Shown in pieces: positions 2,009 through 55,914 of a stretch of DNA of 64,000 nucleotides. Location of the stretch: positions 265,834 to 329,833 of the forward strand of contig JAUWHO010000023.1 in the NCBI GenBank assembly GCA_030605835.1. The letters run 5' to 3'. The notes beneath the pieces were generated by a model that saw only the letters and a list, made by a program, of their open reading frames with translations, had not been told where the DNA came from and made no database searches. Every line of letters begins with the position of its first letter. Position 1 is the first letter of the stretch. The stretch comes from Candidatus Zixiibacteriota bacterium. GTDB lineage: Bacteria > Zixibacteria > MSB-5A5 > DG-27. A program made the position numbers and the translations under genes.

Positions 2009-4681
2009 CTACTTGAGCAACACCATCCTCTTGATATCAGCATAACTCTCACCGCAGGTGAGACGGCAAAAGTAAATACCGCTTGAGACCGGGCGGTCGG
2101 AATTATCCGTCCCCTGCCAGATCATACGGTGATTTCCGGGAAGCATCTCCACCTCCAGCAGGGTTTTCACCTCTTGGCCCTTCAAGTTGTAGATCTTGAG
2201 AGTAGTATAAGCTGCCTCCTTCAAAGCAAACCTGATCTCAGTCCTGGCGTTGAAGGGATTGGGGTAATTCTGAGCCAGCTTGAATTCGAAGGGAGCCGAT
2301 GCTAGCCCCTGCTCGGAGAAGAGCTCACCAAGCCCATCCCAGCTTGTGAGAACGCCTCCAACCTCTCCGCTCTTGGTGAAACTGAAATAGGAGGAGTCGA
2401 TCTTCTCCTGCAACTCGTAGTCGCCAACGTAGGCGATGTAGGTATATTCACCAGAGGGAGCAGCTCCCGGAACTCCCTGGCTTATGCCCTCTCGCGTTCC
2501 CGATTGATAAGGTCGAAGGTGGAGATGGTCATTCAACTTCAAAGGACCGTAATAACCCATTCCGGGAACTTCGGCCATGGTCCAGACGTCCACCACCTGA
2601 TGCTGGCCAGTATTGTTAGTCAGAGTGACGTTGAAGGTGAACTCACCTCCCTGCGGTGGAATCACTATCGGGGGGTTATTGGGAACCATCACAATCTCCA
2701 GCTCACTCGCGGAGGGATTGATTGGCAGAGCAAAACGCTGATCGTCGGTGCGGCCGTTCTGATCAGTAACCTGAATGGTGAAGTATGCAATCTCCTCCTG
2801 AGTAGGATTGCCAGAAATCTCTCCGGTGGAAGGGTTCAGGCTCAATCCCGCGGGGAGTTCTCCGGTGGTGACCTCCCAGCTATAGTGTGGATTTCCACCC
2901 CTGGCTTCCACTGTCTGGCTGTAATACTCTCCAACGGTTCCCTCCGGCAGAGAGGTGGTGACGATGTTGAGGGAATAGCTCGTCGTGCTGGTGTACTTGA
3001 GAATCCAATTGTAGGGGTCAAGCTCTATACCGGTGGGTTGATCGTGCAAGACCACTCGCCAGTCCGCGACCAAGGTGTCGTTCCAAACGCTGACCAGGGT
3101 GTCTCCAGAGTAACCGTTAATCCTGAAATCTATCGGCATGGTGAAAAACGGGGTGGGCTGACTCTGGATCTGGTTTACGTGTATGAAAACTTCGTATTCA
3201 CCGCCTCCGAGGTCCTCGTACATGTATGAGTATTGGTAACGCGGACGATTCACCCCGTAAAGCCAGGGGTCGAAGAACCAGAAGAGATCCCCGGTGGGGT
3301 AATGGTCCTCCATCGCTGCAATGAATTCTGTTGTGATGGCGCTTTCATACATATACCGGGTGCCGTAGTCGATCATCCCTTCGAAGAAGGCCTCATCGCC
3401 CATAACGCGCCGGAGCATGTGCAAGACCCAGGCCCCCTTGTGATAGACGGTGTTGCCGCCGAAGAGGGGGTCGGGGTTGTAAATCGGTCCCGAGGGGTCG
3501 CCGACGGTCAAACGATAGACCATGTAATAGTGGTATGCGTTCCAACCTCCTATATGCTCCTGCCACAGGGCCTCACAGTAAGAAGCGAAACCCTCGTTCA
3601 GCCAGATGTCGGGCCAGGTGGCGCAGGTGACCATATCCCCCCACCACTGATGAGCCAACTCGTGTACCAGAATCCAGTCGTACCAGTGGTTTCCCCAGAT
3701 TAGACCGGAGCCGTAGCTGGTGCAGGTCTGGTGCTCCATCGCCCCTCCCCACTCGTAGATGGCATGACCGTATTTCTCCTCGGTGAAGGGGTATTCCATG
3801 AACAGGTCGGCATAGCAAGCAATGGCGTCAGGAGTGATGCTCAAATCCTCCAGGGCGTTGTTGTAGTGTTCGGGGTAGACGTAGTGAGTAATCGGCATGC
3901 TGTCCGCATCCAGAGTGTAATACCAATCGTCAATGATCTCATAGTTCGTAGCTGCCAGAGAGATCAAGTAAGTCGTGATCGGATACCTCTCCTGCCATTT
4001 GTAGGTTTTTGTACCGTTTCCGTTGTCAATCACCTCCACCAGAACTCCGTTGGAGGCCGCAATCATATCGTCCCGGACGGTGTAGTTGATATCCGCGGAG
4101 TCGGCTTTGTCGGAGGGCACATCTTTACAGGGCCACCACTCCCTTGCCCCCCAGGGCTCCGAGAGAGTCTGAATTATGGGGAAACCGTTGTGGGTGTCCC
4201 ACCAGAAGACGTAGCCGAAGTAACTCAGTCCCGGGTGTCCGTGATAGCTGACGCTGACCTCGAATTGCTCCCCGGCGTTGTAAGTTTGGTTGAGATGGAT
4301 TTCCAGCGAATCGTTATGGTGATTGTAACCCAGAGGTTCCCCTCCGGAAGTAACCCCATCGACCTCCATCTCCTCGGAGAAGTCCAATAGCACGGTGTTA
4401 AGGCCTTCCACCAAGCTGACCGCATAAGTCGAGGCCGTCCCCCAGATGATCTCGCCCGATAAGTCAGTGACATCCAGGTCAAGCCGGTAGAAAAAAACGT
4501 CGAACTCCTCCTGCTGCTGGATTTTCCCTTCATCCAATTCCTGCAAAAGCTGGAAATGGCGGACTCTTGTCTGCCACTCCAGATCGTGAAACTCCGCCGG
4601 AGTCATCGGTTGATCCTGTGCATAAGCGGAGACGAAGAGAAAGAGCAAACTGAAAACCATTACTGCTTTCTTGAAAGACAT
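2009..4681 (-). CDS. Secreted M1-family metallopeptidase with C-terminal sorting domain
   Basis: Zinc aminopeptidase-type enzyme exported from the cell. The ATG at 4681 is preferred over an upstream in-frame start (4711) because GAGGT precedes it and it is followed directly by a signal peptide (MSFKKAVMVFSLLFLFVSAYA). The zinc site HELAHQWW lies at residues 340-347 with the third ligand Glu at 363 (WLNEGFASY), and a GAMEN-like GGAMEH precedes it. After the catalytic region come a putative Ig-like module (about residues 560-655, LPAGLSLNPSTGEISG), a PPQGG module (about 657-770) shared with the beta-helix protein at 50-52 kb, and a C-terminal sorting domain starting at NYPNPFNARTEIRF and ending VLLK. 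Probably delivered across the outer membrane by a type IX-like system. Monocistronic. Peptidase specificity cannot be read from the sequence. Confidence 0.93.
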   Translation of the reverse strand: MSFKKAVMVFSLLFLFVSAYAQDQPMTPAEFHDLEWQTRVRHFQLLQELDEGKIQQQEEFDVFFYRLDLDVTDLSGEIIWGTASTYAVSLVEGLNTVLLDFSEEMEVDGVTSGGEPLGYNHHNDSLEIHLNQTYNAGEQFEVSVSYHGHPGLSYFGYVFWWDTHNGFPIIQTLSEPWGAREWWPCKDVPSDKADSADINYTVRDDMIAASNGVLVEVIDNGNGTKTYKWQERYPITTYLISLAATNYEIIDDWYYTLDADSMPITHYVYPEHYNNALEDLSITPDAIACYADLFMEYPFTEEKYGHAIYEWGGAMEHQTCTSYGSGLIWGNHWYDWILVHELAHQWWGDMVTCATWPDIWLNEGFASYCEALWQEHIGGWNAYHYYMVYRLTVGDPSGPIYNPDPLFGGNTVYHKGAWVLHMLRRVMGDEAFFEGMIDYGTRYMYESAITTEFIAAMEDHYPTGDLFWFFDPWLYGVNRPRYQYSYMYEDLGGGEYEVFIHVNQIQSQPTPFFTMPIDFRINGYSGDTLVSVWNDTLVADWRVVLHDQPTGIELDPYNWILKYTSTTSYSLNIVTTSLPEGTVGEYYSQTVEARGGNPHYSWEVTTGELPAGLSLNPSTGEISGNPTQEEIAYFTIQVTDQNGRTDDQRFALPINPSASELEIVMVPNNPPIVIPPQGGEFTFNVTLTNNTGQHQVVDVWTMAEVPGMGYYGPLKLNDHLHLRPYQSGTREGISQGVPGAAPSGEYTYIAYVGDYELQEKIDSSYFSFTKSGEVGGVLTSWDGLGELFSEQGLASAPFEFKLAQNYPNPFNARTEIRFALKEAAYTTLKIYNLKGQEVKTLLEVEMLPGNHRMIWQGTDNSDRPVSSGIYFCRLTCGESYADIKRMVLLK

Positions 4682-5068
4682 GATGACCTCGCTTAGATTA
4701 AAAGTGGGCACTCACCTTACTCAACAAGAATATACAAGAAACCGCTCCGCAGTCAACCTGAATCCCCGTGGGTGGCGCCTGTCGGGCTCGGTTGGATCGT
4801 TCAGTCTCCCGCTCCCCAATGCGGAATCCGATCCTGAAGGCTCTTTCCCGGGGCATCTTCCACCAGCCGATCCGGGATTCTCCTCGTGAAGACTCTCTTT
4901 TTCCCTTGGAATAGAGCCTTTCACTTTGTAAATTGGAAAGCGTTTGCGACCGCTTACAATTCTCAGTGAGCGGTGCAGCGGGTTTTTGTATCAAGGGAAG
5001 CCGATGGGACCATCTCCTTTCGGTCCCCAGAGATCTGAATGATTGTCAAGGTCAAAGGAGATAGATAG
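4682..5068. other. Divergent intergenic region
   Basis: 387 bases between the minus-strand M1 peptidase and the plus-strand lyase, so both promoters should lie here. I do not see a convincing -35/-10 pair. Overlapping frames in this stretch (4671-4889 plus; 4698-4994 minus) have no ribosome binding site and no protein-like composition. Confidence 0.4.
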
Positions 5069-6601
5069 ATGACAGTCTACGTTGACGGCGAAAACATAAA
5101 GATAGAGCAAGTCGAAGAGGTCACGAGGGGTGGGGCCAAAGTCGAATTCTCCGAGAGGGGCAAGAACAATATCGAGAATTGCTGGGCGTCCGTGCTGGAT
5201 CTGGTCAATACCGGAGAAGCCATCTACGGGGTTACTACCGGGATTGGAGAGTTCGCCCGAATCCGCATCAGCCCGGAGCAAAGCTCCCAGCTGCAGAAAA
5301 ACATAATCTACAGCCACGCTGCCGGCACCGGAGATCTTCAACCGGACGAGGTCGTTAGAGGAGCGATGCTTCTCAGAGCCAACGTCTTGGCCAAGGGTTA
5401 CTCCGGAGTGCGGCTCTCCACCGCCCAGATGTTACTGGACATGTTGAACAAGGGCGTCCATCCGGTAGTCTTTGAGAAAGGGTCTGTCGGCACCTCCGGA
5501 GATCTATCGCCGTTGAGCCAACTGGCGGAGGTCTGTCTGGGTGAAGGGGAGGCCTTTTACCAGGGAGAGCGACTCCCCGGTGCAGAAGTCATGAAGCGCG
5601 CGGGCTTAAAGCCCCTGGAGCCAACCTATAAGGAGGGTTTAGGCCTCATCAACGGAAGCCAGATGGTCACCTCCGGGGCATCGTTACTGTTAGTTGACGC
5701 CAGGAGGTTATTGAAGAACGCCTTTATAGCTTCCGCAATGACCATCGACGCCCTGAAGGGAGTTCCCAAGGCATACGATGCCAGGCTTCACGCCGCCCGC
5801 CCCTTCAAGGGACAGAACGTGGTGGCCCACAACCTTCGGCTTCTGATGGCGGACTCGGAGGTCATCGCCGAGAAATCCGGAAAGGTGCAGGACGGCTATT
5901 CGATGAGGTGCACCCCCCAGGTGTTGGGACCGAGCGTCGACTGCTGGCATTACGCCCGCGAGCAAGTGGAAATAGAGATCAACTCCGCCGCCGACAACCC
6001 CGTTTTCATCCCTCAGGATAACGCCCACCTGGCCGGCGGGAACTTCCACGGTCAGCCGATCGGGATGGTTATGGATTTCCTCTGTATCGCCATGAGCGAG
6101 GTCGCCAACCTAAGCGAGCGTCATACCAACCGTCTTCTCAATCCCACTCTGAGTGGTCTTCCCGATTTTCTGGTTAAGGAGAGAGGCCTAAACAGCGGTT
6201 TGATGGTGGCGCAATATACCGCCGCCGCCTTAGTGAGTGAAAACAAGGTCTTATCCCATCCGGCCACGGTGGACTCCATCAGCGTCTCCGCAGACCAGGA
6301 AGATCACGTTTCCATGGCCCCGATTGCGGTGCGGAAATGCACCGAGATCCTAAAGAACGTGGGGGTGGTCTTAGCGATTGAGATGATGTCAGCGGCTCAG
6401 GCCTTCGATTTCCGAAAGCCCTTGAAACCGGGTAAGGGAACCAGGGTCGCCTATGAGCTGATAAGAGAACATGTCACCCATTTGAAGCAAGACCGGGTGC
6501 TCTATCCCGACCTCAATAAGATTGCGGAACTCATCAGGAACAACGCCATTCTGAATGCGGTCGAGGCCGAGCTCGGAGAGTTGCCTCTGCGCCTGGAATG
6601 A
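5069..6601 (+). CDS. hutH: MIO-dependent aromatic amino acid ammonia-lyase (histidine ammonia-lyase family)
   Basis: 510 residues, the usual length for bacterial histidine ammonia-lyase, which converts histidine to urocanate and ammonia. Family signatures: YGVTTGIGEFA near residue 50, NIIYSHAAGTGD near 80, the prosthetic-group motif at GSVGTSGDLSPL, FHGQPIGM near 330 and QEDHVSM near 410. The MIO cofactor in this family is formed autocatalytically from Ala-Ser-Gly; here the tripeptide is Thr-Ser-Gly (residues 142-144). No hutU, hutI or hutG neighbour is present, so a histidine catabolic role is not supported by context; another lyase or an aminomutase is possible. The start follows AAAGGAG about 12 bases upstream. 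Confidence 0.88.
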   Translation: MTVYVDGENIKIEQVEEVTRGGAKVEFSERGKNNIENCWASVLDLVNTGEAIYGVTTGIGEFARIRISPEQSSQLQKNIIYSHAAGTGDLQPDEVVRGAMLLRANVLAKGYSGVRLSTAQMLLDMLNKGVHPVVFEKGSVGTSGDLSPLSQLAEVCLGEGEAFYQGERLPGAEVMKRAGLKPLEPTYKEGLGLINGSQMVTSGASLLLVDARRLLKNAFIASAMTIDALKGVPKAYDARLHAARPFKGQNVVAHNLRLLMADSEVIAEKSGKVQDGYSMRCTPQVLGPSVDCWHYAREQVEIEINSAADNPVFIPQDNAHLAGGNFHGQPIGMVMDFLCIAMSEVANLSERHTNRLLNPTLSGLPDFLVKERGLNSGLMVAQYTAAALVSENKVLSHPATVDSISVSADQEDHVSMAPIAVRKCTEILKNVGVVLAIEMMSAAQAFDFRKPLKPGKGTRVAYELIREHVTHLKQDRVLYPDLNKIAELIRNNAILNAVEAELGELPLRLE

Positions 6602-25982: not shown

Positions 25983-27908
25983 GTGAAACCCTTCATCAAA
26001 ATCAGCATCCTGTTGCTGGTGCTCGTTTGCTGGGGGCAAGTATCTTTCGCAGGGTATACAGACCCAGCAACCGTCACGGTGACCAGATGGGCCGACCCCA
26101 ACACCGAGCCGATCACCTATGAGGAGTATATAGCCAGTCGCCATTTCGCGGAGTCCTTCAATTCCACGATGGTCTACGCCTCGTCGGCTCTGGGAGAGAT
26201 GGATATCTGCATCGTGGTGAACGAGTACCTCTATCCCCTGATCGAGACCTCCCTCAACACCTTCTTTGACGATTTGGAGGGAGATGGCTACCTGCTGCAC
26301 GTCTACACTGCCGCAAACAACGGCGACGAGGAGGCCCTGCGTAACCTTCTGATCTCGGAGTGGAATACACACAGTATCACCGGAGTCTTTTTCATCGGGG
26401 ATCTGGCTGTCGCCTGGTATGAGATGGACAACCCTCACCCATGGTACCACGAGGAGTTTCCCATCGACCTTTATTTCATGGACTTAGACGGCACCTGGGG
26501 AGACAGCGACAACGATGGGCTGTATGATTCCCACGGGGGAGAACTTCTGGCGGACATCTACGTCGCCAGGCTCATCGCCTCCAACCTGCAGTACCACGGC
26601 GGCGAGGAAGTCGCTCTAATGACCAACTACTTCGACAAGAACCATCGCTATCGCGCCCGCAGTCTCAGATTGGACGACCGCGGTTTGGCCTTCATCGATG
26701 ATGACTGGTGCTCCTATGGGTGGGAAAACGATCTAGCCCTGGTCTATCCCGACGTTGTGGCAATAACCGAGCCCAACCAGACCAGCCGGAATGAATATGT
26801 CAACCAGATTCAGGGCTCAAGCAACAACCGCTTCGAATATGTCTTCGTCTGTGCTCACTCCTCCCCCAGCCTGAACTCCTTCAGGACCTCCAGTGGTACA
26901 ACTTATTTCTACAATTACGAAATCGAGCCGCTTCCGGTGCAGGCGTTCTTTTACAATCTCTTTGCCTGTTCCAACAGCCGTTACGTCACAAACGACAACA
27001 TGGGGAGCTGGTATGTCCTCGAGAGCCAATATGGCTTGCTTTCGATAGGTAGCACCAAAACCGGCGCCATGCTCAACTTCGAGGACTACTTCGGACCGGT
27101 CAGCGAGGGAGAAACTTTCGGCACCGCTTTCATGTTGTGGGCTCAGGAGAACATGGAGGAGGGAGCCGGGTATGAGAGTCGTCCCTGGTTCTACGGCATG
27201 ACCACTCTGGGAGACCCCACCCTCAAGCCTGCAAGTCACATGGTTTACGACCTGGCTCTGATCTGCAACAACCTTAGCCCGGTTTTCTGTCGAGGTTCGA
27301 ACTTCTACTTCCAGATTACAACCATCAACCAGACCGGCAATCCCATAAACCTGACCATGACTTTCCGCGGCTATGCCGGCTTTAACTGTGACCCTGCTAA
27401 CGTGCTGGTCACTATTCCCAGGAATAAGAATATCCCCGTCGGCACTAACACTAGCAATTACTTCTTCAAGGTGCCGAATGCAGTTGCCCCTGGAGAGTAC
27501 AGCGCCTCAGTGAGCTTTGAATACAACGAGGAGACTTACTTCTGCTGCATGGACGCCACCATCGTTCAGTGTGAGCCCTGGAAATCTGGTGGGAACACCG
27601 CCTGGGAGCTTGTCGAAGTTGAGCGTCCGGAACTTGGACTTCCTGCAGTAAGCGAGCTTCATCAGAACTATCCCAATCCCTTCAACGCTGAGACCAATAT
27701 CAGCTACAGTTTGGCCGAGGCTGGGAACGTCAGCCTCAAGGTCTATGACATTTCTGGTCGTCTGGTGGTTACCGTGTTTGAGGGATATCAGGAGGCCGGC
27801 GAGCATGTTGTGACTTGGGATGCTTCTGGTATCCCCAGCGGCGTCTACTTCTACAAGCTCGCCACTGCAGTTTACACCGCCACCAAGAAGATGAATTTGC
27901 TGAGGTAA
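25983..27908 (+). CDS. Secreted C25-family (gingipain-like) cysteine peptidase with C-terminal sorting domain
   Basis: 641 residues from the GTG at 25983, chosen because AGGAGG lies six bases upstream and a signal peptide follows (MKPFIKISILLLVLVCWGQVSFAG). The peptidase C25 dyad is visible: His292 in FVCAHSSP and Cys329 in LFACSNSRYV, with the preceding FFIGDLAVAWYEM segment resembling the conserved strand before the catalytic region. A beta-sandwich follows, then a sorting domain beginning NYPNPFNAETNISY near residue 562 and ending KKMNLLR. The catalytic spacing and length are within the family range. An arginine or lysine preference cannot be read off. Confidence 0.88.
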   Translation: MKPFIKISILLLVLVCWGQVSFAGYTDPATVTVTRWADPNTEPITYEEYIASRHFAESFNSTMVYASSALGEMDICIVVNEYLYPLIETSLNTFFDDLEGDGYLLHVYTAANNGDEEALRNLLISEWNTHSITGVFFIGDLAVAWYEMDNPHPWYHEEFPIDLYFMDLDGTWGDSDNDGLYDSHGGELLADIYVARLIASNLQYHGGEEVALMTNYFDKNHRYRARSLRLDDRGLAFIDDDWCSYGWENDLALVYPDVVAITEPNQTSRNEYVNQIQGSSNNRFEYVFVCAHSSPSLNSFRTSSGTTYFYNYEIEPLPVQAFFYNLFACSNSRYVTNDNMGSWYVLESQYGLLSIGSTKTGAMLNFEDYFGPVSEGETFGTAFMLWAQENMEEGAGYESRPWFYGMTTLGDPTLKPASHMVYDLALICNNLSPVFCRGSNFYFQITTINQTGNPINLTMTFRGYAGFNCDPANVLVTIPRNKNIPVGTNTSNYFFKVPNAVAPGEYSASVSFEYNEETYFCCMDATIVQCEPWKSGGNTAWELVEVERPELGLPAVSELHQNYPNPFNAETNISYSLAEAGNVSLKVYDISGRLVVTVFEGYQEAGEHVVTWDASGIPSGVYFYKLATAVYTATKKMNLLR

Positions 27909-49984: not shown

Positions 49985-51847
49985 CTACTTCACCAGCATC
50001 ATCCTCCGGGTATTGGTGTAATCTCCTGCGGTGAGCTTGTAGAAGTAGAGACCGGAGGAGACCTCCGAGGCATCCCAGCTGACAGATCTATATCCAGCCT
50101 CCTGTGTTTCATCAACCAGAGTCGCCACTGTTCGACCGAGCAGGTTGTAAATCTCCAATCTAACGTGACTTGTGACTGGCAACTGATAGTTAATGGCTGC
50201 GGTAGCGTTGAAGGGGTTGGGATAGTTCTGGCTCAAGGCGTAGTGTGTTGGCAGGCCACTTCCTGTTGAGACGAAATCGTCATCGAACCAGCCCTTGAGG
50301 GTGCGCCAGTTGTCTATCTGGCTAGAGGCCTGAGCAGGTTCCTCTTTTGAGAAATAGAAACAGCTGGAGTCGATGATTGAGGAACCAAAGTCCCCGATGT
50401 AAGTCACGAAGGAGTAATCTCCACCAGGCGCAAAATCTGGAACGTGTTCGCTGAGATCAGCTCTCACAATGCTATCTCCTGGAGGGATGGTGATGTCGTT
50501 GTAGCGCCAGAGGCGGTGAGGTTGGCTCAGGCCGGGCACAAAGGCGCAAGCCCAGATATCGACAGTAAGCTCCCCACGGGAGAGATTGAGAACACCACCG
50601 TCATAGGTCAGGTCACCTCCTTGTGGGGGAATGACGATAGGCTCATCATGAGGATAAACCTCAACGATTCCCAGAACCGCCTGGTTGAAGTAGAAGGCGC
50701 CCATGTCGGAGCGGGTACCGTCGGGGTCGAGAGGCGAGTTAGGATCTCCGGCATCGATGCAGGGGGAGTGCCACCTGAGATGGAAATCTTCGTTGTATGG
50801 CCCCGCAAAAATCGGGTCGGCGTCGATACATCCTACCCCTTCCCAGCCGCCCTGGACATCACAGTAGGTGACGGTCGGATTTGGGTAGTCGAAGTAAATC
50901 TCCGGACCGAACGGTGCCGAATCTCCCCACAGCACGGTATTCGTGATCGTGACGGCGGAGCTGTTGCAGGCAATGCCCCCACCGTACCAAAGGGCAGTGT
51001 TGCCGCTGATGGTATTATTGCTCATGTTTACGGTAGAATACCAGATGTCAACGCCACCTCCGTACATGCCAGCCTCATTCCCGCTGATGGTGCAGTTTGT
51101 GATGGTTGCGCTGGAGTACTCGATTTCGATGCCGCCGCCAAGCATGTCGGTCGTATTTCCGACAACGGTGCAATGCTCGATGGTTGCGCTAGCTTCCAAG
51201 AGTGCTATCCCTCCGCCGGCATAGAAGCCACCAGTGTTCTCGGATACAGTGCAGTAACTGATCTTTGCGTTGGCGCCGTATCCGACGCCAACTCCGCCGC
51301 TGGCGCTGTCTGCCGAATTCTGGGTGATAAGACAGTGTTCGAGGATTGGACTGGAGTCCCAGCCAAGTGAGAGTCCGCCGTTCCAGTATTCAGCCCAGTT
51401 CCATCTAATGGTACAGTGGCTGATGGTCGGACTCGAATTCTCGCAATGGATCCCTCCACCGAACCAGTCGGGGTCAGGTCCTCTCGCCCGGCCATACTGG
51501 ATGATGCAGTAGGACAAGTGGCTGTTATCTTGCGCATTGCTGAACCGGATGCCGTGCCAACCCTCGGTGATGTCGGCAGCGGTGAAGAGAACCGAATCGC
51601 TTTCCGTACCGATTGCTTCCAGATACCCGTTCACGATAAGCTTGTAGTGCCCCTGAAAGATCACTTCCACCCCTTCGTGGATGTTCAGGGTAGAATCAAC
51701 GGGCACGTTGATCTCGCCGTTGACGTTGTAAGGATTCCCGGAGGAGTACCAGTCTCCTGATACTGGACCGGGACCGATTTCGGTCGCATTGGTAGTCAGC
51801 GGAAACACTAAGACCGCCACTGCCAGGATTGTGATCAAGTAACGCAT
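49985..51847 (-). CDS. Secreted right-handed beta-helix protein with C-terminal sorting domain
   Basis: 620 residues. Signal peptide (MRYLITILAVAVLVFPLTTNATE). Residues about 70-360 are parallel beta-helix repeats (CIIQYGRARGPDPDWFGGGI, CTIRWNWAEYWNGGLSLGWDS, CTVSENTGGFYAGGGI, CTVVGNTTDMLGGGIEI and similar) of the right-handed type found in polysaccharide lyases and adhesins. Then a PPQGG module (about 395-510, PIVIPPQGGDLTY) shared with the M1 peptidase, and a sorting domain from SQNYPNPFNATAAINYQL to MLVK. No catalytic residue can be named, so a binding or structural role is as likely as a lyase. Confidence 0.88.
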   Translation of the reverse strand: MRYLITILAVAVLVFPLTTNATEIGPGPVSGDWYSSGNPYNVNGEINVPVDSTLNIHEGVEVIFQGHYKLIVNGYLEAIGTESDSVLFTAADITEGWHGIRFSNAQDNSHLSYCIIQYGRARGPDPDWFGGGIHCENSSPTISHCTIRWNWAEYWNGGLSLGWDSSPILEHCLITQNSADSASGGVGVGYGANAKISYCTVSENTGGFYAGGGIALLEASATIEHCTVVGNTTDMLGGGIEIEYSSATITNCTISGNEAGMYGGGVDIWYSTVNMSNNTISGNTALWYGGGIACNSSAVTITNTVLWGDSAPFGPEIYFDYPNPTVTYCDVQGGWEGVGCIDADPIFAGPYNEDFHLRWHSPCIDAGDPNSPLDPDGTRSDMGAFYFNQAVLGIVEVYPHDEPIVIPPQGGDLTYDGGVLNLSRGELTVDIWACAFVPGLSQPHRLWRYNDITIPPGDSIVRADLSEHVPDFAPGGDYSFVTYIGDFGSSIIDSSCFYFSKEEPAQASSQIDNWRTLKGWFDDDFVSTGSGLPTHYALSQNYPNPFNATAAINYQLPVTSHVRLEIYNLLGRTVATLVDETQEAGYRSVSWDASEVSSGLYFYKLTAGDYTNTRRMMLVK

Positions 51848-54345: not shown

Positions 54346-54558
54346 TCACTTCACCAGCATCATTCTCCTGGTCTCGGTGAAATCCCCAGCCGTCAGCTTG
54401 TAGAAATAGAGACCGGATGAAACCTCCGAAGCATCCCAGACAACAGACCTGTATCCTGCCTGCTGTTTGCTGTCTACTAACGTGGCCACCTTCTGTCCTA
54501 GGGTATTGTGAACCTCCAGCTTGATGTGACCAGCAGCCGCCAGCTGGTAAGCGGCATT
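54346..54558 (-). pseudogene. Orphan C-terminal sorting domain (5' truncated gene)
   Basis: The frame ending at 54346 encodes NAAYQLAAAGHIKLEVHNTL, VATLVDSKQQAGYRSVVWDA, SEVSSGLYFYKLTAGDF and TETRRMMLVK, closely matching the end of the beta-helix protein's sorting domain and still in frame. The YPNPFN anchor and everything before it are lost, with an in-frame stop shortly upstream. Lies just after the stop of the minus-strand glycosyltransferase. Confidence 0.75.
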
Positions 54559-54604: not shown

Positions 54605-55840
54605 TCACTCCAACCTGCTGCGAAGCGAGGAGAAAATCAGAAGCAGCCCGTTGGCAGCATAGATCCATATATAGGGCTCGACCGGGAAGCGGAATCTGGT
54701 GGAGCCGAACGCCGCCAAAGGAACGGCGAGGGCAAAATAGGCGATTGTCAGAATCAAGAGTATAGAGCCGAAGTTGACCTGAAGACGAAATAGCCCAAGC
54801 AGGAACAAAAAGAGCATCACCAGTCCCACGCCGGAGGTGACAAATAGACGCCCGATTCGAGGGAGGCTGACAAATCCCTGCAGGTCATACCCCCTCCAGA
54901 ATTCCCACAGCTCCTGCGCCTGCCAGAGCAGAAACGAAAAGGGTCTTTTCTTGATAACGCGGAGAGCTCCCTGCAAGTAGATTTTGTCGACCTCCTCACG
55001 GGAGTATCCCGCGTCCATCAGTCTGTTGCTGGCCTCCCAAACGTTGCCGCGCCTCTCGATTACACTGTCAACCTCCACGGAGGCGGGCAAATCCAGGGTG
55101 ACAGAGGTGTGGTGAGCAACCTTCAAGGTCAGATTGCGTCCCAGAAGGGGGGTGAAGCCGACATTGCCGGTTTTCGCATAGTTATACCAGAACCACGGCA
55201 GGATCACCAAAGCCACGCCGAGGATTGAAAGCAAGAAAAATCGCAGAACTCTCTTGAACGACCGGTATTTCATCCACAACGGCACCAGGATCACGAAGGG
55301 TAGAAGCTGTTCCGGGGGCCTGCAAAGTATGTGATAACCCAGAAGTAACCCTGAGGCAAAAAAGTAAAAGGGCTGGTCTTTCTCCATAGCCAGCAATAAG
55401 AGCAGCACAAGTGCGCTCAAAGTGAGTATGGAAATAGGTTCGGAAAGGATGAAATTGGGGAAGATCAGCATATATGGGTTGAGCAGAAAGATGCTGGCGC
55501 CAATGACTGCCGGCAACTCTGCGACCACCTTTCTCCCGACCAGAAAGACAAAAATGCCCGCCAGCACCACCATGACTTGCTGCAAAAGAGCAACGGCGAA
55601 GTTGTTCTCGCCCGCAAGCGTATATACACCAGCTAAGAAGAGAGGGTAACCGGGGGTGCGCAGAACGTCCCTTTTCTCCAGCCCCGTGAAATAGTCCTCC
55701 CCGCTGGCGATGTTGATCGCCGGTATGGTATAGTCTTCGGTGTCCTGGCTTACGACGGGACCAAGCATCACCAGGCCGGCGACTCTGATAACCAGGCTTA
55801 TGACTGCAAGGATGAGAAATAGTCTTAAGTGTTGAGACAC
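54605..55840 (-). CDS. PMT/ArnT-like membrane glycosyltransferase (GT39 type)
   Basis: About 411 residues with nine or more membrane spans (for example LFLILAVISLVIRVAGLVML, VALLQQVMVVLAGIFVFLV, LTLSALVLLLLLAM). Typical of polyprenyl-phosphate-sugar glycosyltransferases: an acidic loop after the first span (PVVSQDTEDYTIPAINIASGED) and the RTPGYPLFLAG segment. The start is set at GTG 55840 because a near-consensus promoter (55886-55914) overlaps the first nine codons of the longer frame (55906); the longer start would put the promoter inside the gene. Substrate unknown. Confidence 0.75.
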   Translation of the reverse strand: MSQHLRLFLILAVISLVIRVAGLVMLGPVVSQDTEDYTIPAINIASGEDYFTGLEKRDVLRTPGYPLFLAGVYTLAGENNFAVALLQQVMVVLAGIFVFLVGRKVVAELPAVIGASIFLLNPYMLIFPNFILSEPISILTLSALVLLLLLAMEKDQPFYFFASGLLLGYHILCRPPEQLLPFVILVPLWMKYRSFKRVLRFFLLSILGVALVILPWFWYNYAKTGNVGFTPLLGRNLTLKVAHHTSVTLDLPASVEVDSVIERRGNVWEASNRLMDAGYSREEVDKIYLQGALRVIKKRPFSFLLWQAQELWEFWRGYDLQGFVSLPRIGRLFVTSGVGLVMLFLFLLGLFRLQVNFGSILLILTIAYFALAVPLAAFGSTRFRFPVEPYIWIYAANGLLLIFSSLRSRLE

Positions 55841-55885
55841 GGGGTTACGCTTGTCTTGTGAACACTTCAGCGATTTGCATCGGTC

Positions 55886-55914
55886 AGTATATTTGCTCAC
55901 TTGCATGATGTCAA
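55886..55914 (-). promoter_or_regulatory. Strong sigma-70 promoter that decides the start of the membrane glycosyltransferase
   Basis: Minus strand TTGACA (55914-55909), 17-base spacer, TATACT (55891-55886). It lies over the first codons of the longest frame, so the likely start is the downstream GTG at 55840. Confidence 0.65.

What the first reader, a model, noticed from the sequence alone, without database searches (positions are those of the whole stretch)
50315..50660. A PPQGG module shared by a peptidase and a beta-helix protein
Residues around PIVIPPQGGxF/L and the following YVGDY / YIGDF segments (IDSSYFSF, IDSSCFYF) recur, in the same order and just before the sorting domain, in the M1 peptidase (about 2350-2700) and in the beta-helix protein (about 50315-50660), two proteins with otherwise unrelated catalytic parts. 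The C25 peptidase has no equivalent. This looks like a mobile ~110-residue linker or sorting accessory domain that may not be catalogued.
Basis: partly seen in the sequence, partly recalled or inferred. Interest (0 to 1): 0.6.

Follow-up and report, generated by a model that had tools for sequence, protein, structure and literature searches.

The report
RbmA-like module before T9SS sorting domains
A ~107-residue beta-sandwich domain, distantly related to the biofilm-matrix protein RbmA and missing from Pfam and NCBIfam, sits just before the export signal of about 50 unrelated secreted proteins in this bacterium and has been copied between them as a ready-made tail.

Summary
The two modules (window 50336-50671 and 2363-2701, minus strand) are homologous: 36% identity over 107 residues, alignment score 190 against a shuffle maximum of 47. 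The genome, in the same genus as Zixibacteria DG_27, holds 50 copies. Every copy lies 24-51 residues upstream of a type IX secretion (T9SS) sorting domain, and 50 of 133 sorting-domain proteins carry one.

Neither Pfam nor NCBIfam catalogues it above cut-off. It is not featureless, though. An AlphaFold2 model (pLDDT 94) is a seven-strand sandwich whose best PDB matches are all RbmA FnIII domains. A profile of the family finds only RbmA in the whole PDB (E 3e-12).

It is mobile. Unrelated heads (C25 peptidase, FG-GAP propeller, DUF5122 propeller, beta-helix) share a ~670-bp tail (module + linker + sorting domain) at 74-81% DNA identity, breaking at the module's first codons and at the stop.

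The window's C25 peptidase does have something in the slot: a Cys-rich module found in 19 proteins.

Most likely role: an RbmA-like, surface-proximal spacer or anchor domain; glycan contact is inferred, not shown.

Side finding: two module-bearing cargoes may be exported selenoproteins.

The parts
50336..50671 (-). PPQGG (RbmA-like) module of the beta-helix protein, 112 residues
   Evidence: Alignment with the M1 copy and 45 further copies in the genome
50225..50335 (-). 37-residue linker between module and sorting domain, with the recurrent W...GWF motif; the sortase cut is expected here by analogy with RgpB
   Evidence: Linker extraction; RgpB precedent PMC4804311
50000..50224 (-). Type A T9SS C-terminal sorting domain (Por_Secre_tail) of the beta-helix protein
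   Evidence: PF18962 1e-10 and TIGR04183 8.8e-12, residues 542-617
50672..51847 (-). Signal peptide and right-handed beta-helix head of the beta-helix protein
   Evidence: TIGR03804 parallel beta-helix repeat over its cut-off; ORF 49985-51847
2363..2701 (-). PPQGG (RbmA-like) module of the M1 peptidase, 113 residues; modelled at pLDDT 94 as a seven-strand beta-sandwich
2045..2266 (-). Type A T9SS sorting domain of the M1 peptidase
   Evidence: PF18962 4.7e-6, TIGR04183 1.8e-7, residues 816-890
2726..2959 (-). He_PIG Ig-like domain of the M1 peptidase, directly upstream of the module
   Evidence: PF05345 5e-14
27252..27575 (+). Cys-rich pre-sorting-domain module of the C25 peptidase, the occupant of the same slot; relationship to the PPQGG module suggestive only
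   Evidence: Found in 19 proteins of the genome; hhalign with the PPQGG family P 2.2e-5, probability 76%
27669..27893 (+). Type A T9SS sorting domain of the C25 peptidase
   Evidence: TIGR04183 2.5e-14 at C51:293502-293726

Best explanation
The PPQGG module is an uncatalogued family of RbmA-like FnIII beta-sandwich domains used as an interchangeable, membrane-proximal tail piece of T9SS cargo. Shown here: homology and fold; obligatory company of a type A sorting domain in this genome; fixed position; presence of the T9SS translocon subunit and sortase; a module-linker-sorting domain cassette shared between unrelated heads. Inferred: the cargo crosses the outer membrane by its sorting domain, PorU cuts in the 21-46 residue linker, and the module then becomes the C-terminal end of the mature protein, next to the lipid or polysaccharide anchor. 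There it holds the catalytic or adhesive head off the surface (the spacer role proposed for the IgSF domain in RgpB). As a relative of the polysaccharide-binding FnIII-2 of RbmA, it may also touch the cell's own surface polysaccharide or matrix.
For: 50 of 50 module matches in the genome are followed by a sorting domain 73-154 bp downstream, one per protein; 50 of 133 sorting-domain proteins carry it. PorU and SprA are present. AlphaFold2 pLDDT 94.3. The eight best Foldseek PDB hits are all RbmA, E 2e-6, TM 0.78. The profile of 20 diverse copies matches only RbmA in the PDB, E 3e-12, on both FnIII domains. Reciprocally, Pfam PF22021 hits all 9 module-rich genomes and 0 of 14 controls; several of these hits coincide in position with modules found by our own profile. 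Cassette exchange: between unrelated heads, DNA identity of 74-81% starts -12 to 0 nt from the module start in the clearest pairs and ends within 14 nt of the stop in most. The RgpB catalytic-IgSF-linker-CTD layout is published (PMC4804311), as is RbmA FnIII-2 binding polysaccharide (PMC5605196).
Against: No binding or secretion data exist. The residue aligned with RbmA's switch residue R234 is Arg in only 7 of 20 copies (the numbering is my inference), so RbmA's dimer switch is not conserved. Members score mostly below Pfam's cut-off. In some genomes of other phyla the module lies before a beta-propeller rather than before the sorting domain, so surface-proximity is not universal.
Confidence: 0.55

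Rival explanations
1. Inert linker: an FnIII-like spacer with no specific ligand, spread merely because it hitch-hikes upstream of a useful sorting domain.
For: Ig and FnIII spacers are common in secreted proteins. The module is spread over heads as different as peptidases, propellers and beta-helices, which argues against head-specific function. Most sorting-domain proteins do without it.
Against: Strong conservation of specific residues (GG, N, W, P, GP, VP..AP.G.Y, G, D, F) across phyla, and amplification to 46-140 copies in several lineages while nearly absent from others, suggest more than a neutral linker.
Confidence: 0.25
2. Glycan or matrix anchor: the module's main role is RbmA-like binding of the producer's own exopolysaccharide, gathering the T9SS secretome in a matrix.
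For: Closest relative by sequence and fold is RbmA, whose FnIII-2 alone binds the Vibrio polysaccharide. About 50 copies per genome would give multivalent binding.
Against: RbmA's binding-patch residues could not be compared (they are in a figure only). The R234-equivalent is not conserved. The type A sorting domain already implies covalent anchoring.
Confidence: 0.15
3. Sorting accessory: the module is part of the export signal, recognised by the T9SS machinery or needed for correct sortase processing.
For: Strict 24-51 residue spacing to the sorting domain in 50 of 50 cases in this genome. Sorting domains cluster by module type more than chance: 22 changes against a shuffled mean of 53. [quoted passage not shown]
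Against: About 62% of sorting-domain proteins lack the module; module and sorting-domain distances are not significantly correlated; in other phyla it can be at the N-terminal end.
Confidence: 0.15

Closest known systems
RbmA FnIII domains (Vibrio cholerae biofilm scaffold; Pfam PF22021 RbmA-like_FnIII)
   Same: Fold (TM 0.78, top eight PDB hits) and detectable sequence homology of both FnIII domains (E 3e-12 with the 20-row profile), with shared GG, N, W, P-G and P.G.Y positions.
   Different: About 20% identity; single copy per protein instead of tandem; attached to a T9SS sorting domain and diverse heads; the R234-equivalent is not conserved; no window or Zixibacteria member reaches the Pfam cut-off.
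IgSF domain of gingipains (Peptidase_C25_C, PF03785) before the T9SS CTD
   Same: Position and architecture: head, beta-sandwich, flexible linker, CTD (PMC4804311).
   Different: No sequence match to PF03785. In C25 peptidase L057 both occur, the IgSF at residues 593-672 and the module at 688-793, so it is an addition to the IgSF domain and not the same thing.
NPCBM_assoc / NEW3, DUF11, CARDB and FxLYD beta-sandwich families
   Same: Same general sandwich class; sub-threshold profile hits or lower-ranked fold hits.
   Different: Sequence hits below every cut-off, and fold hits ranked below RbmA.

Membership tests
PF22021 RbmA-like FnIII | Score at or above the curated Pfam cut-off (27 bits) | tested here: not met
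   Best member in the window's genome (G000) 24.7 bits; only 2 loci in other genomes pass, 31.7 and 27.2 bits. So it is a distant relative, not an assigned member.
PF22021 RbmA-like FnIII | Seven-strand FnIII-type beta-sandwich superposing on RbmA | tested here: met
   AF2 pLDDT 94; Foldseek E 2e-6, TM 0.78, 109 columns
PF22021 RbmA-like FnIII | Significant sequence homology to RbmA | tested here: met
   Profile of 20 modules: RbmA is the only PDB match, E 3e-12; profile of 47: E 1e-4
RbmA (whole protein) | Tandem FnIII pair forming a dimer through the D97/R234 switch | tested here: not met
   One module per protein in the genome; R234-equivalent Arg in 7 of 20
RbmA (whole protein) | Binds exopolysaccharide | not testable with these tools
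   Known for RbmA FnIII-2 (PMC5605196)
T9SS type A cargo (host proteins) | C-terminal Por_Secre_tail domain over cut-off | tested here: met
   46 of 47 module proteins match PF18962 at E <= 0.001; both window proteins are over the cut-off
T9SS type A cargo (host proteins) | Genome encodes translocon subunit SprA and sortase PorU | tested here: met
   NF033707 732.7 bits; PF14349 104.9 bits, both over cut-off
Gingipain IgSF (PF03785) | Sequence match to PF03785 | tested here: not met
   No hit in any of 47 modules; separate PF03785 hits lie upstream in C25 cargo

The most novel reading that the evidence does not exclude
Interchangeable tails as address labels: the PPQGG and Cys-rich cassettes (module + linker + matched sorting-domain subtype) direct whatever head they are fused to towards different surface polysaccharides or shuttles, so the lineage builds its secretome by swapping tails. 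Two of the tagged cargoes would in addition be exported selenoproteins.
Probability: 0.15. Interest if true: 0.75.

Novelty: new variant of a known kind. Interest (0 to 1): 0.55.

Why it matters
It names a domain present in 46-140 copies per genome in several uncultured lineages and unlabelled in Pfam and NCBIfam, so a large part of their surface proteins gains an anatomical and functional handle. It extends RbmA-type domains, known from a Vibrio biofilm scaffold, to T9SS secretomes. It also shows domain-exact tail sharing between unrelated secreted proteins, which makes the role of the pre-sorting-domain slot testable.

Tried and rejected
Chance similarity was rejected. A known Pfam or NCBIfam family above cut-off was rejected for the module. 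Viral origin: the IMG/VR scan found no relative, and viral fold hits were weaker than RbmA. Strict co-evolution of module and sorting domain: not supported; the Mantel correlation was about 0 on all 48 proteins and 0.11 (181 of 2000 permutations as high) after dropping outliers. The fold of the Cys-rich module from a single sequence was inconclusive, pLDDT 52, and no fold search was run on it. Two related-loci runs with the full alignment failed for lack of a conserved stretch and were replaced by a smaller alignment. Searches of the open literature for this module, for RbmA-like domains in T9SS cargo, or for T9SS selenoproteins found nothing relevant.

Full report
OBSERVATION. In the beta-helix protein (ORF 49985-51847, minus strand, 620 aa) the module spans window 50336-50671; in the M1 peptidase (ORF 2009-4711, minus, 900 aa) it spans 2363-2701. 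The two are 36% identical over 107 residues. The local alignment scores 190; 1000 shuffles reached at most 47; searching all window ORFs with either copy finds only the other, E 8.5e-20 and 1.7e-19. In both proteins the next domain is Por_Secre_tail.

COPY NUMBER AND POSITION. A search of the window's own genome (2.68 Mb, 53 contigs, 96% complete) gave 47 copies with one sequence and 50 with the profile A2. All 50 are followed, on the same strand, by a T9SS sorting domain 73-154 bp downstream. On translated proteins, 50 carry both domains and 82 carry the sorting domain only; one further module-bearing ORF ends at the edge of its fetched stretch and is listed whole elsewhere. No protein has two PPQGG modules. 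The linker is 21-46 residues (median 33), with a Trp in its first 25 residues in 43 of 48. Heads include beta-helices, C25, M14, M28, M1 and C11 peptidases, FG-GAP and DUF5122 propellers, and LVIVD repeats.

HOST. One genome of the same genus (G001) gives the same match list as the genome holding L068, 'candidate division Zixibacteria bacterium DG_27', and the window's GyrB fragment is 96% identical to it. The genome encodes the T9SS sortase PorU (732.7 bits, cut-off 420) and the translocon subunit SprA (104.9 bits, cut-off 27).

DISTRIBUTION. Within the phylum set held, 8 of 133 genomes match; apart from single hits in two genomes, all are in two families, with dozens of copies in each near-complete genome (50-123). 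Elsewhere the module is very abundant: 87 copies in TA06 SM23_40, 140 in LCP-89 B3, 47 in Tariuqbacter arcticus, 46 in BS750m-G18, 122 and 126 in two unnamed sediment or marine MAGs, 18 in a Rhodothermales MAG. In 297 genomes drawn evenly from the phylum of that Rhodothermales MAG, only that MAG and one weak hit matched. No viral contig matched.

WHAT IT IS. No module reaches a Pfam or NCBIfam cut-off in the window or in its genome. Two different lines point to RbmA. Structure: AlphaFold2 with 20 aligned copies gave pLDDT 94.3 and seven strands; the eight best PDB matches are all RbmA, E 2e-6, TM 0.78, 20% identity, ahead of GH3 glucosidase, AlkC and CARDB sandwiches. Sequence: the profile of 47 copies found only RbmA in the PDB (E 1e-4), and the profile of 20 copies from several phyla found only RbmA at E 3e-12, on both of its FnIII domains. 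The reverse search with Pfam's RbmA-like_FnIII model matched all nine module-rich genomes tested and none of 14 control genomes, mostly below its cut-off; by coordinates several of those hits, for example G000:C51:25683-25901 and G134:C109:4325-4552, fall inside modules found with our own profile. So the module is an uncatalogued, distant branch of the RbmA-like FnIII group.

MOBILITY. Modules 80-88% identical in protein sit on different heads. L009 has FG-GAP repeats, L014 a DUF5122 propeller, L057 a C25 peptidase, L034:3355 a beta-helix. Between such genes DNA identity is 74-81% over ~670 bp, starting at nucleotide -12 to 0 relative to the module and ending at the stop codon in the clearest pairs. 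A second class of pairs starts at the sorting domain. Pairs with related heads instead keep similarity far upstream. BLAST borders always fall where homology stops, so the evidence is the combination of a shared, fairly similar tail with heads of different Pfam families. The direction (tail moved or head replaced) and the recombination mechanism are not known.

THE SAME SLOT HOLDS A SECOND MODULE. Nineteen sorting-domain proteins without the PPQGG module carry a Cys-rich module (CRGKNFYF...VPnaaGPG.YSAS...CCM...QC) about 110 residues from the end, among them the window's C25 peptidase (window 27252-27575). No protein has both types. Profile comparison with the PPQGG family is suggestive (P 2.2e-5, probability 76%), but a single-sequence fold was poor (pLDDT 52). 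Whether the two modules are related stays open. Sorting domains cluster by module type: 22 changes on the tree against 53 on shuffled labels, though few branches of that tree are well supported.

HOW IT MOST LIKELY WORKS. In the gingipain RgpB an Ig-like domain precedes the CTD, joined by an unstructured linker; PorU removes the CTD, and the authors suggest the Ig domain is a spacer or insulator (PMC4804311). By analogy, the PPQGG module would be the last domain of the mature protein, next to the surface anchor. RbmA's FnIII-2 domain alone binds Vibrio polysaccharide (PMC5605196), so contact with surface polysaccharide is plausible here, but RbmA's switch residue is not conserved and no binding was tested. 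A pure sorting function is unlikely, because most cargo lacks the module and in other phyla it can lie N-terminal to a propeller, far from the sorting domain.

SIDE FINDING. Two adjacent module-bearing beta-helix genes (contig C31, L046:2186-3646 and 3800-5308) and their relative in DG_27 (L068) have an in-frame TGA at the same place: YYCPG-TGA-GGG, MYCG-TGA-GGD, MYCG-TGA-SGG. Reading it through gives a continuous beta-helix protein. The hairpin CTCCCGGTACGGGAG follows about 25-28 nt after the TGA, identical in all three, and folds in all three. The genome has tRNA-Sec (ARAGORN; RF01852, 69.8 bits, cut-off 47) and SelB (TIGR00475, 368.8 bits, cut-off 242). Rfam has no hit at the hairpin. These are candidate exported selenoproteins; the step from UGA to Sec is inferred.

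Noticed in passing
L046:2795-2797 and L046:4460-4462 (own genome, contig C31); L068:34-36 (DG_27): Conserved in-frame TGA in module-bearing T9SS beta-helix genes, followed by an identical hairpin (CTCCCGGTACGGGAG); the genome has tRNA-Sec (L212:11362-11456) and SelB (L221:9096-10964). Candidate exported selenoproteins.
   Followed up: partly
window 27252-27575 and 18 other proteins of the genome (e.g. L102, L105, L112, L127): A second uncatalogued, Cys-rich ~108-residue module occupies the same slot before the sorting domain, including in the window's C25 peptidase.
   Followed up: partly
window 54358-54543, minus strand: An orphan sorting-domain fragment in a 77-aa ORF, just downstream of the 433-aa ORF 54605-55906: a possible frameshift or decayed cargo gene.
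   Followed up: no
L069:4292-4609, L077:5001-5315, L076:5622-5948: In some genomes of other phyla the module lies N-terminal to a long beta-propeller instead of directly before the sorting domain.
   Followed up: partly
L131 (own genome, contig C3:11323-14110): One cargo protein carries two Cys-rich modules in tandem, residues 547-652 and 672-779, a layout reminiscent of RbmA's tandem.
   Followed up: no
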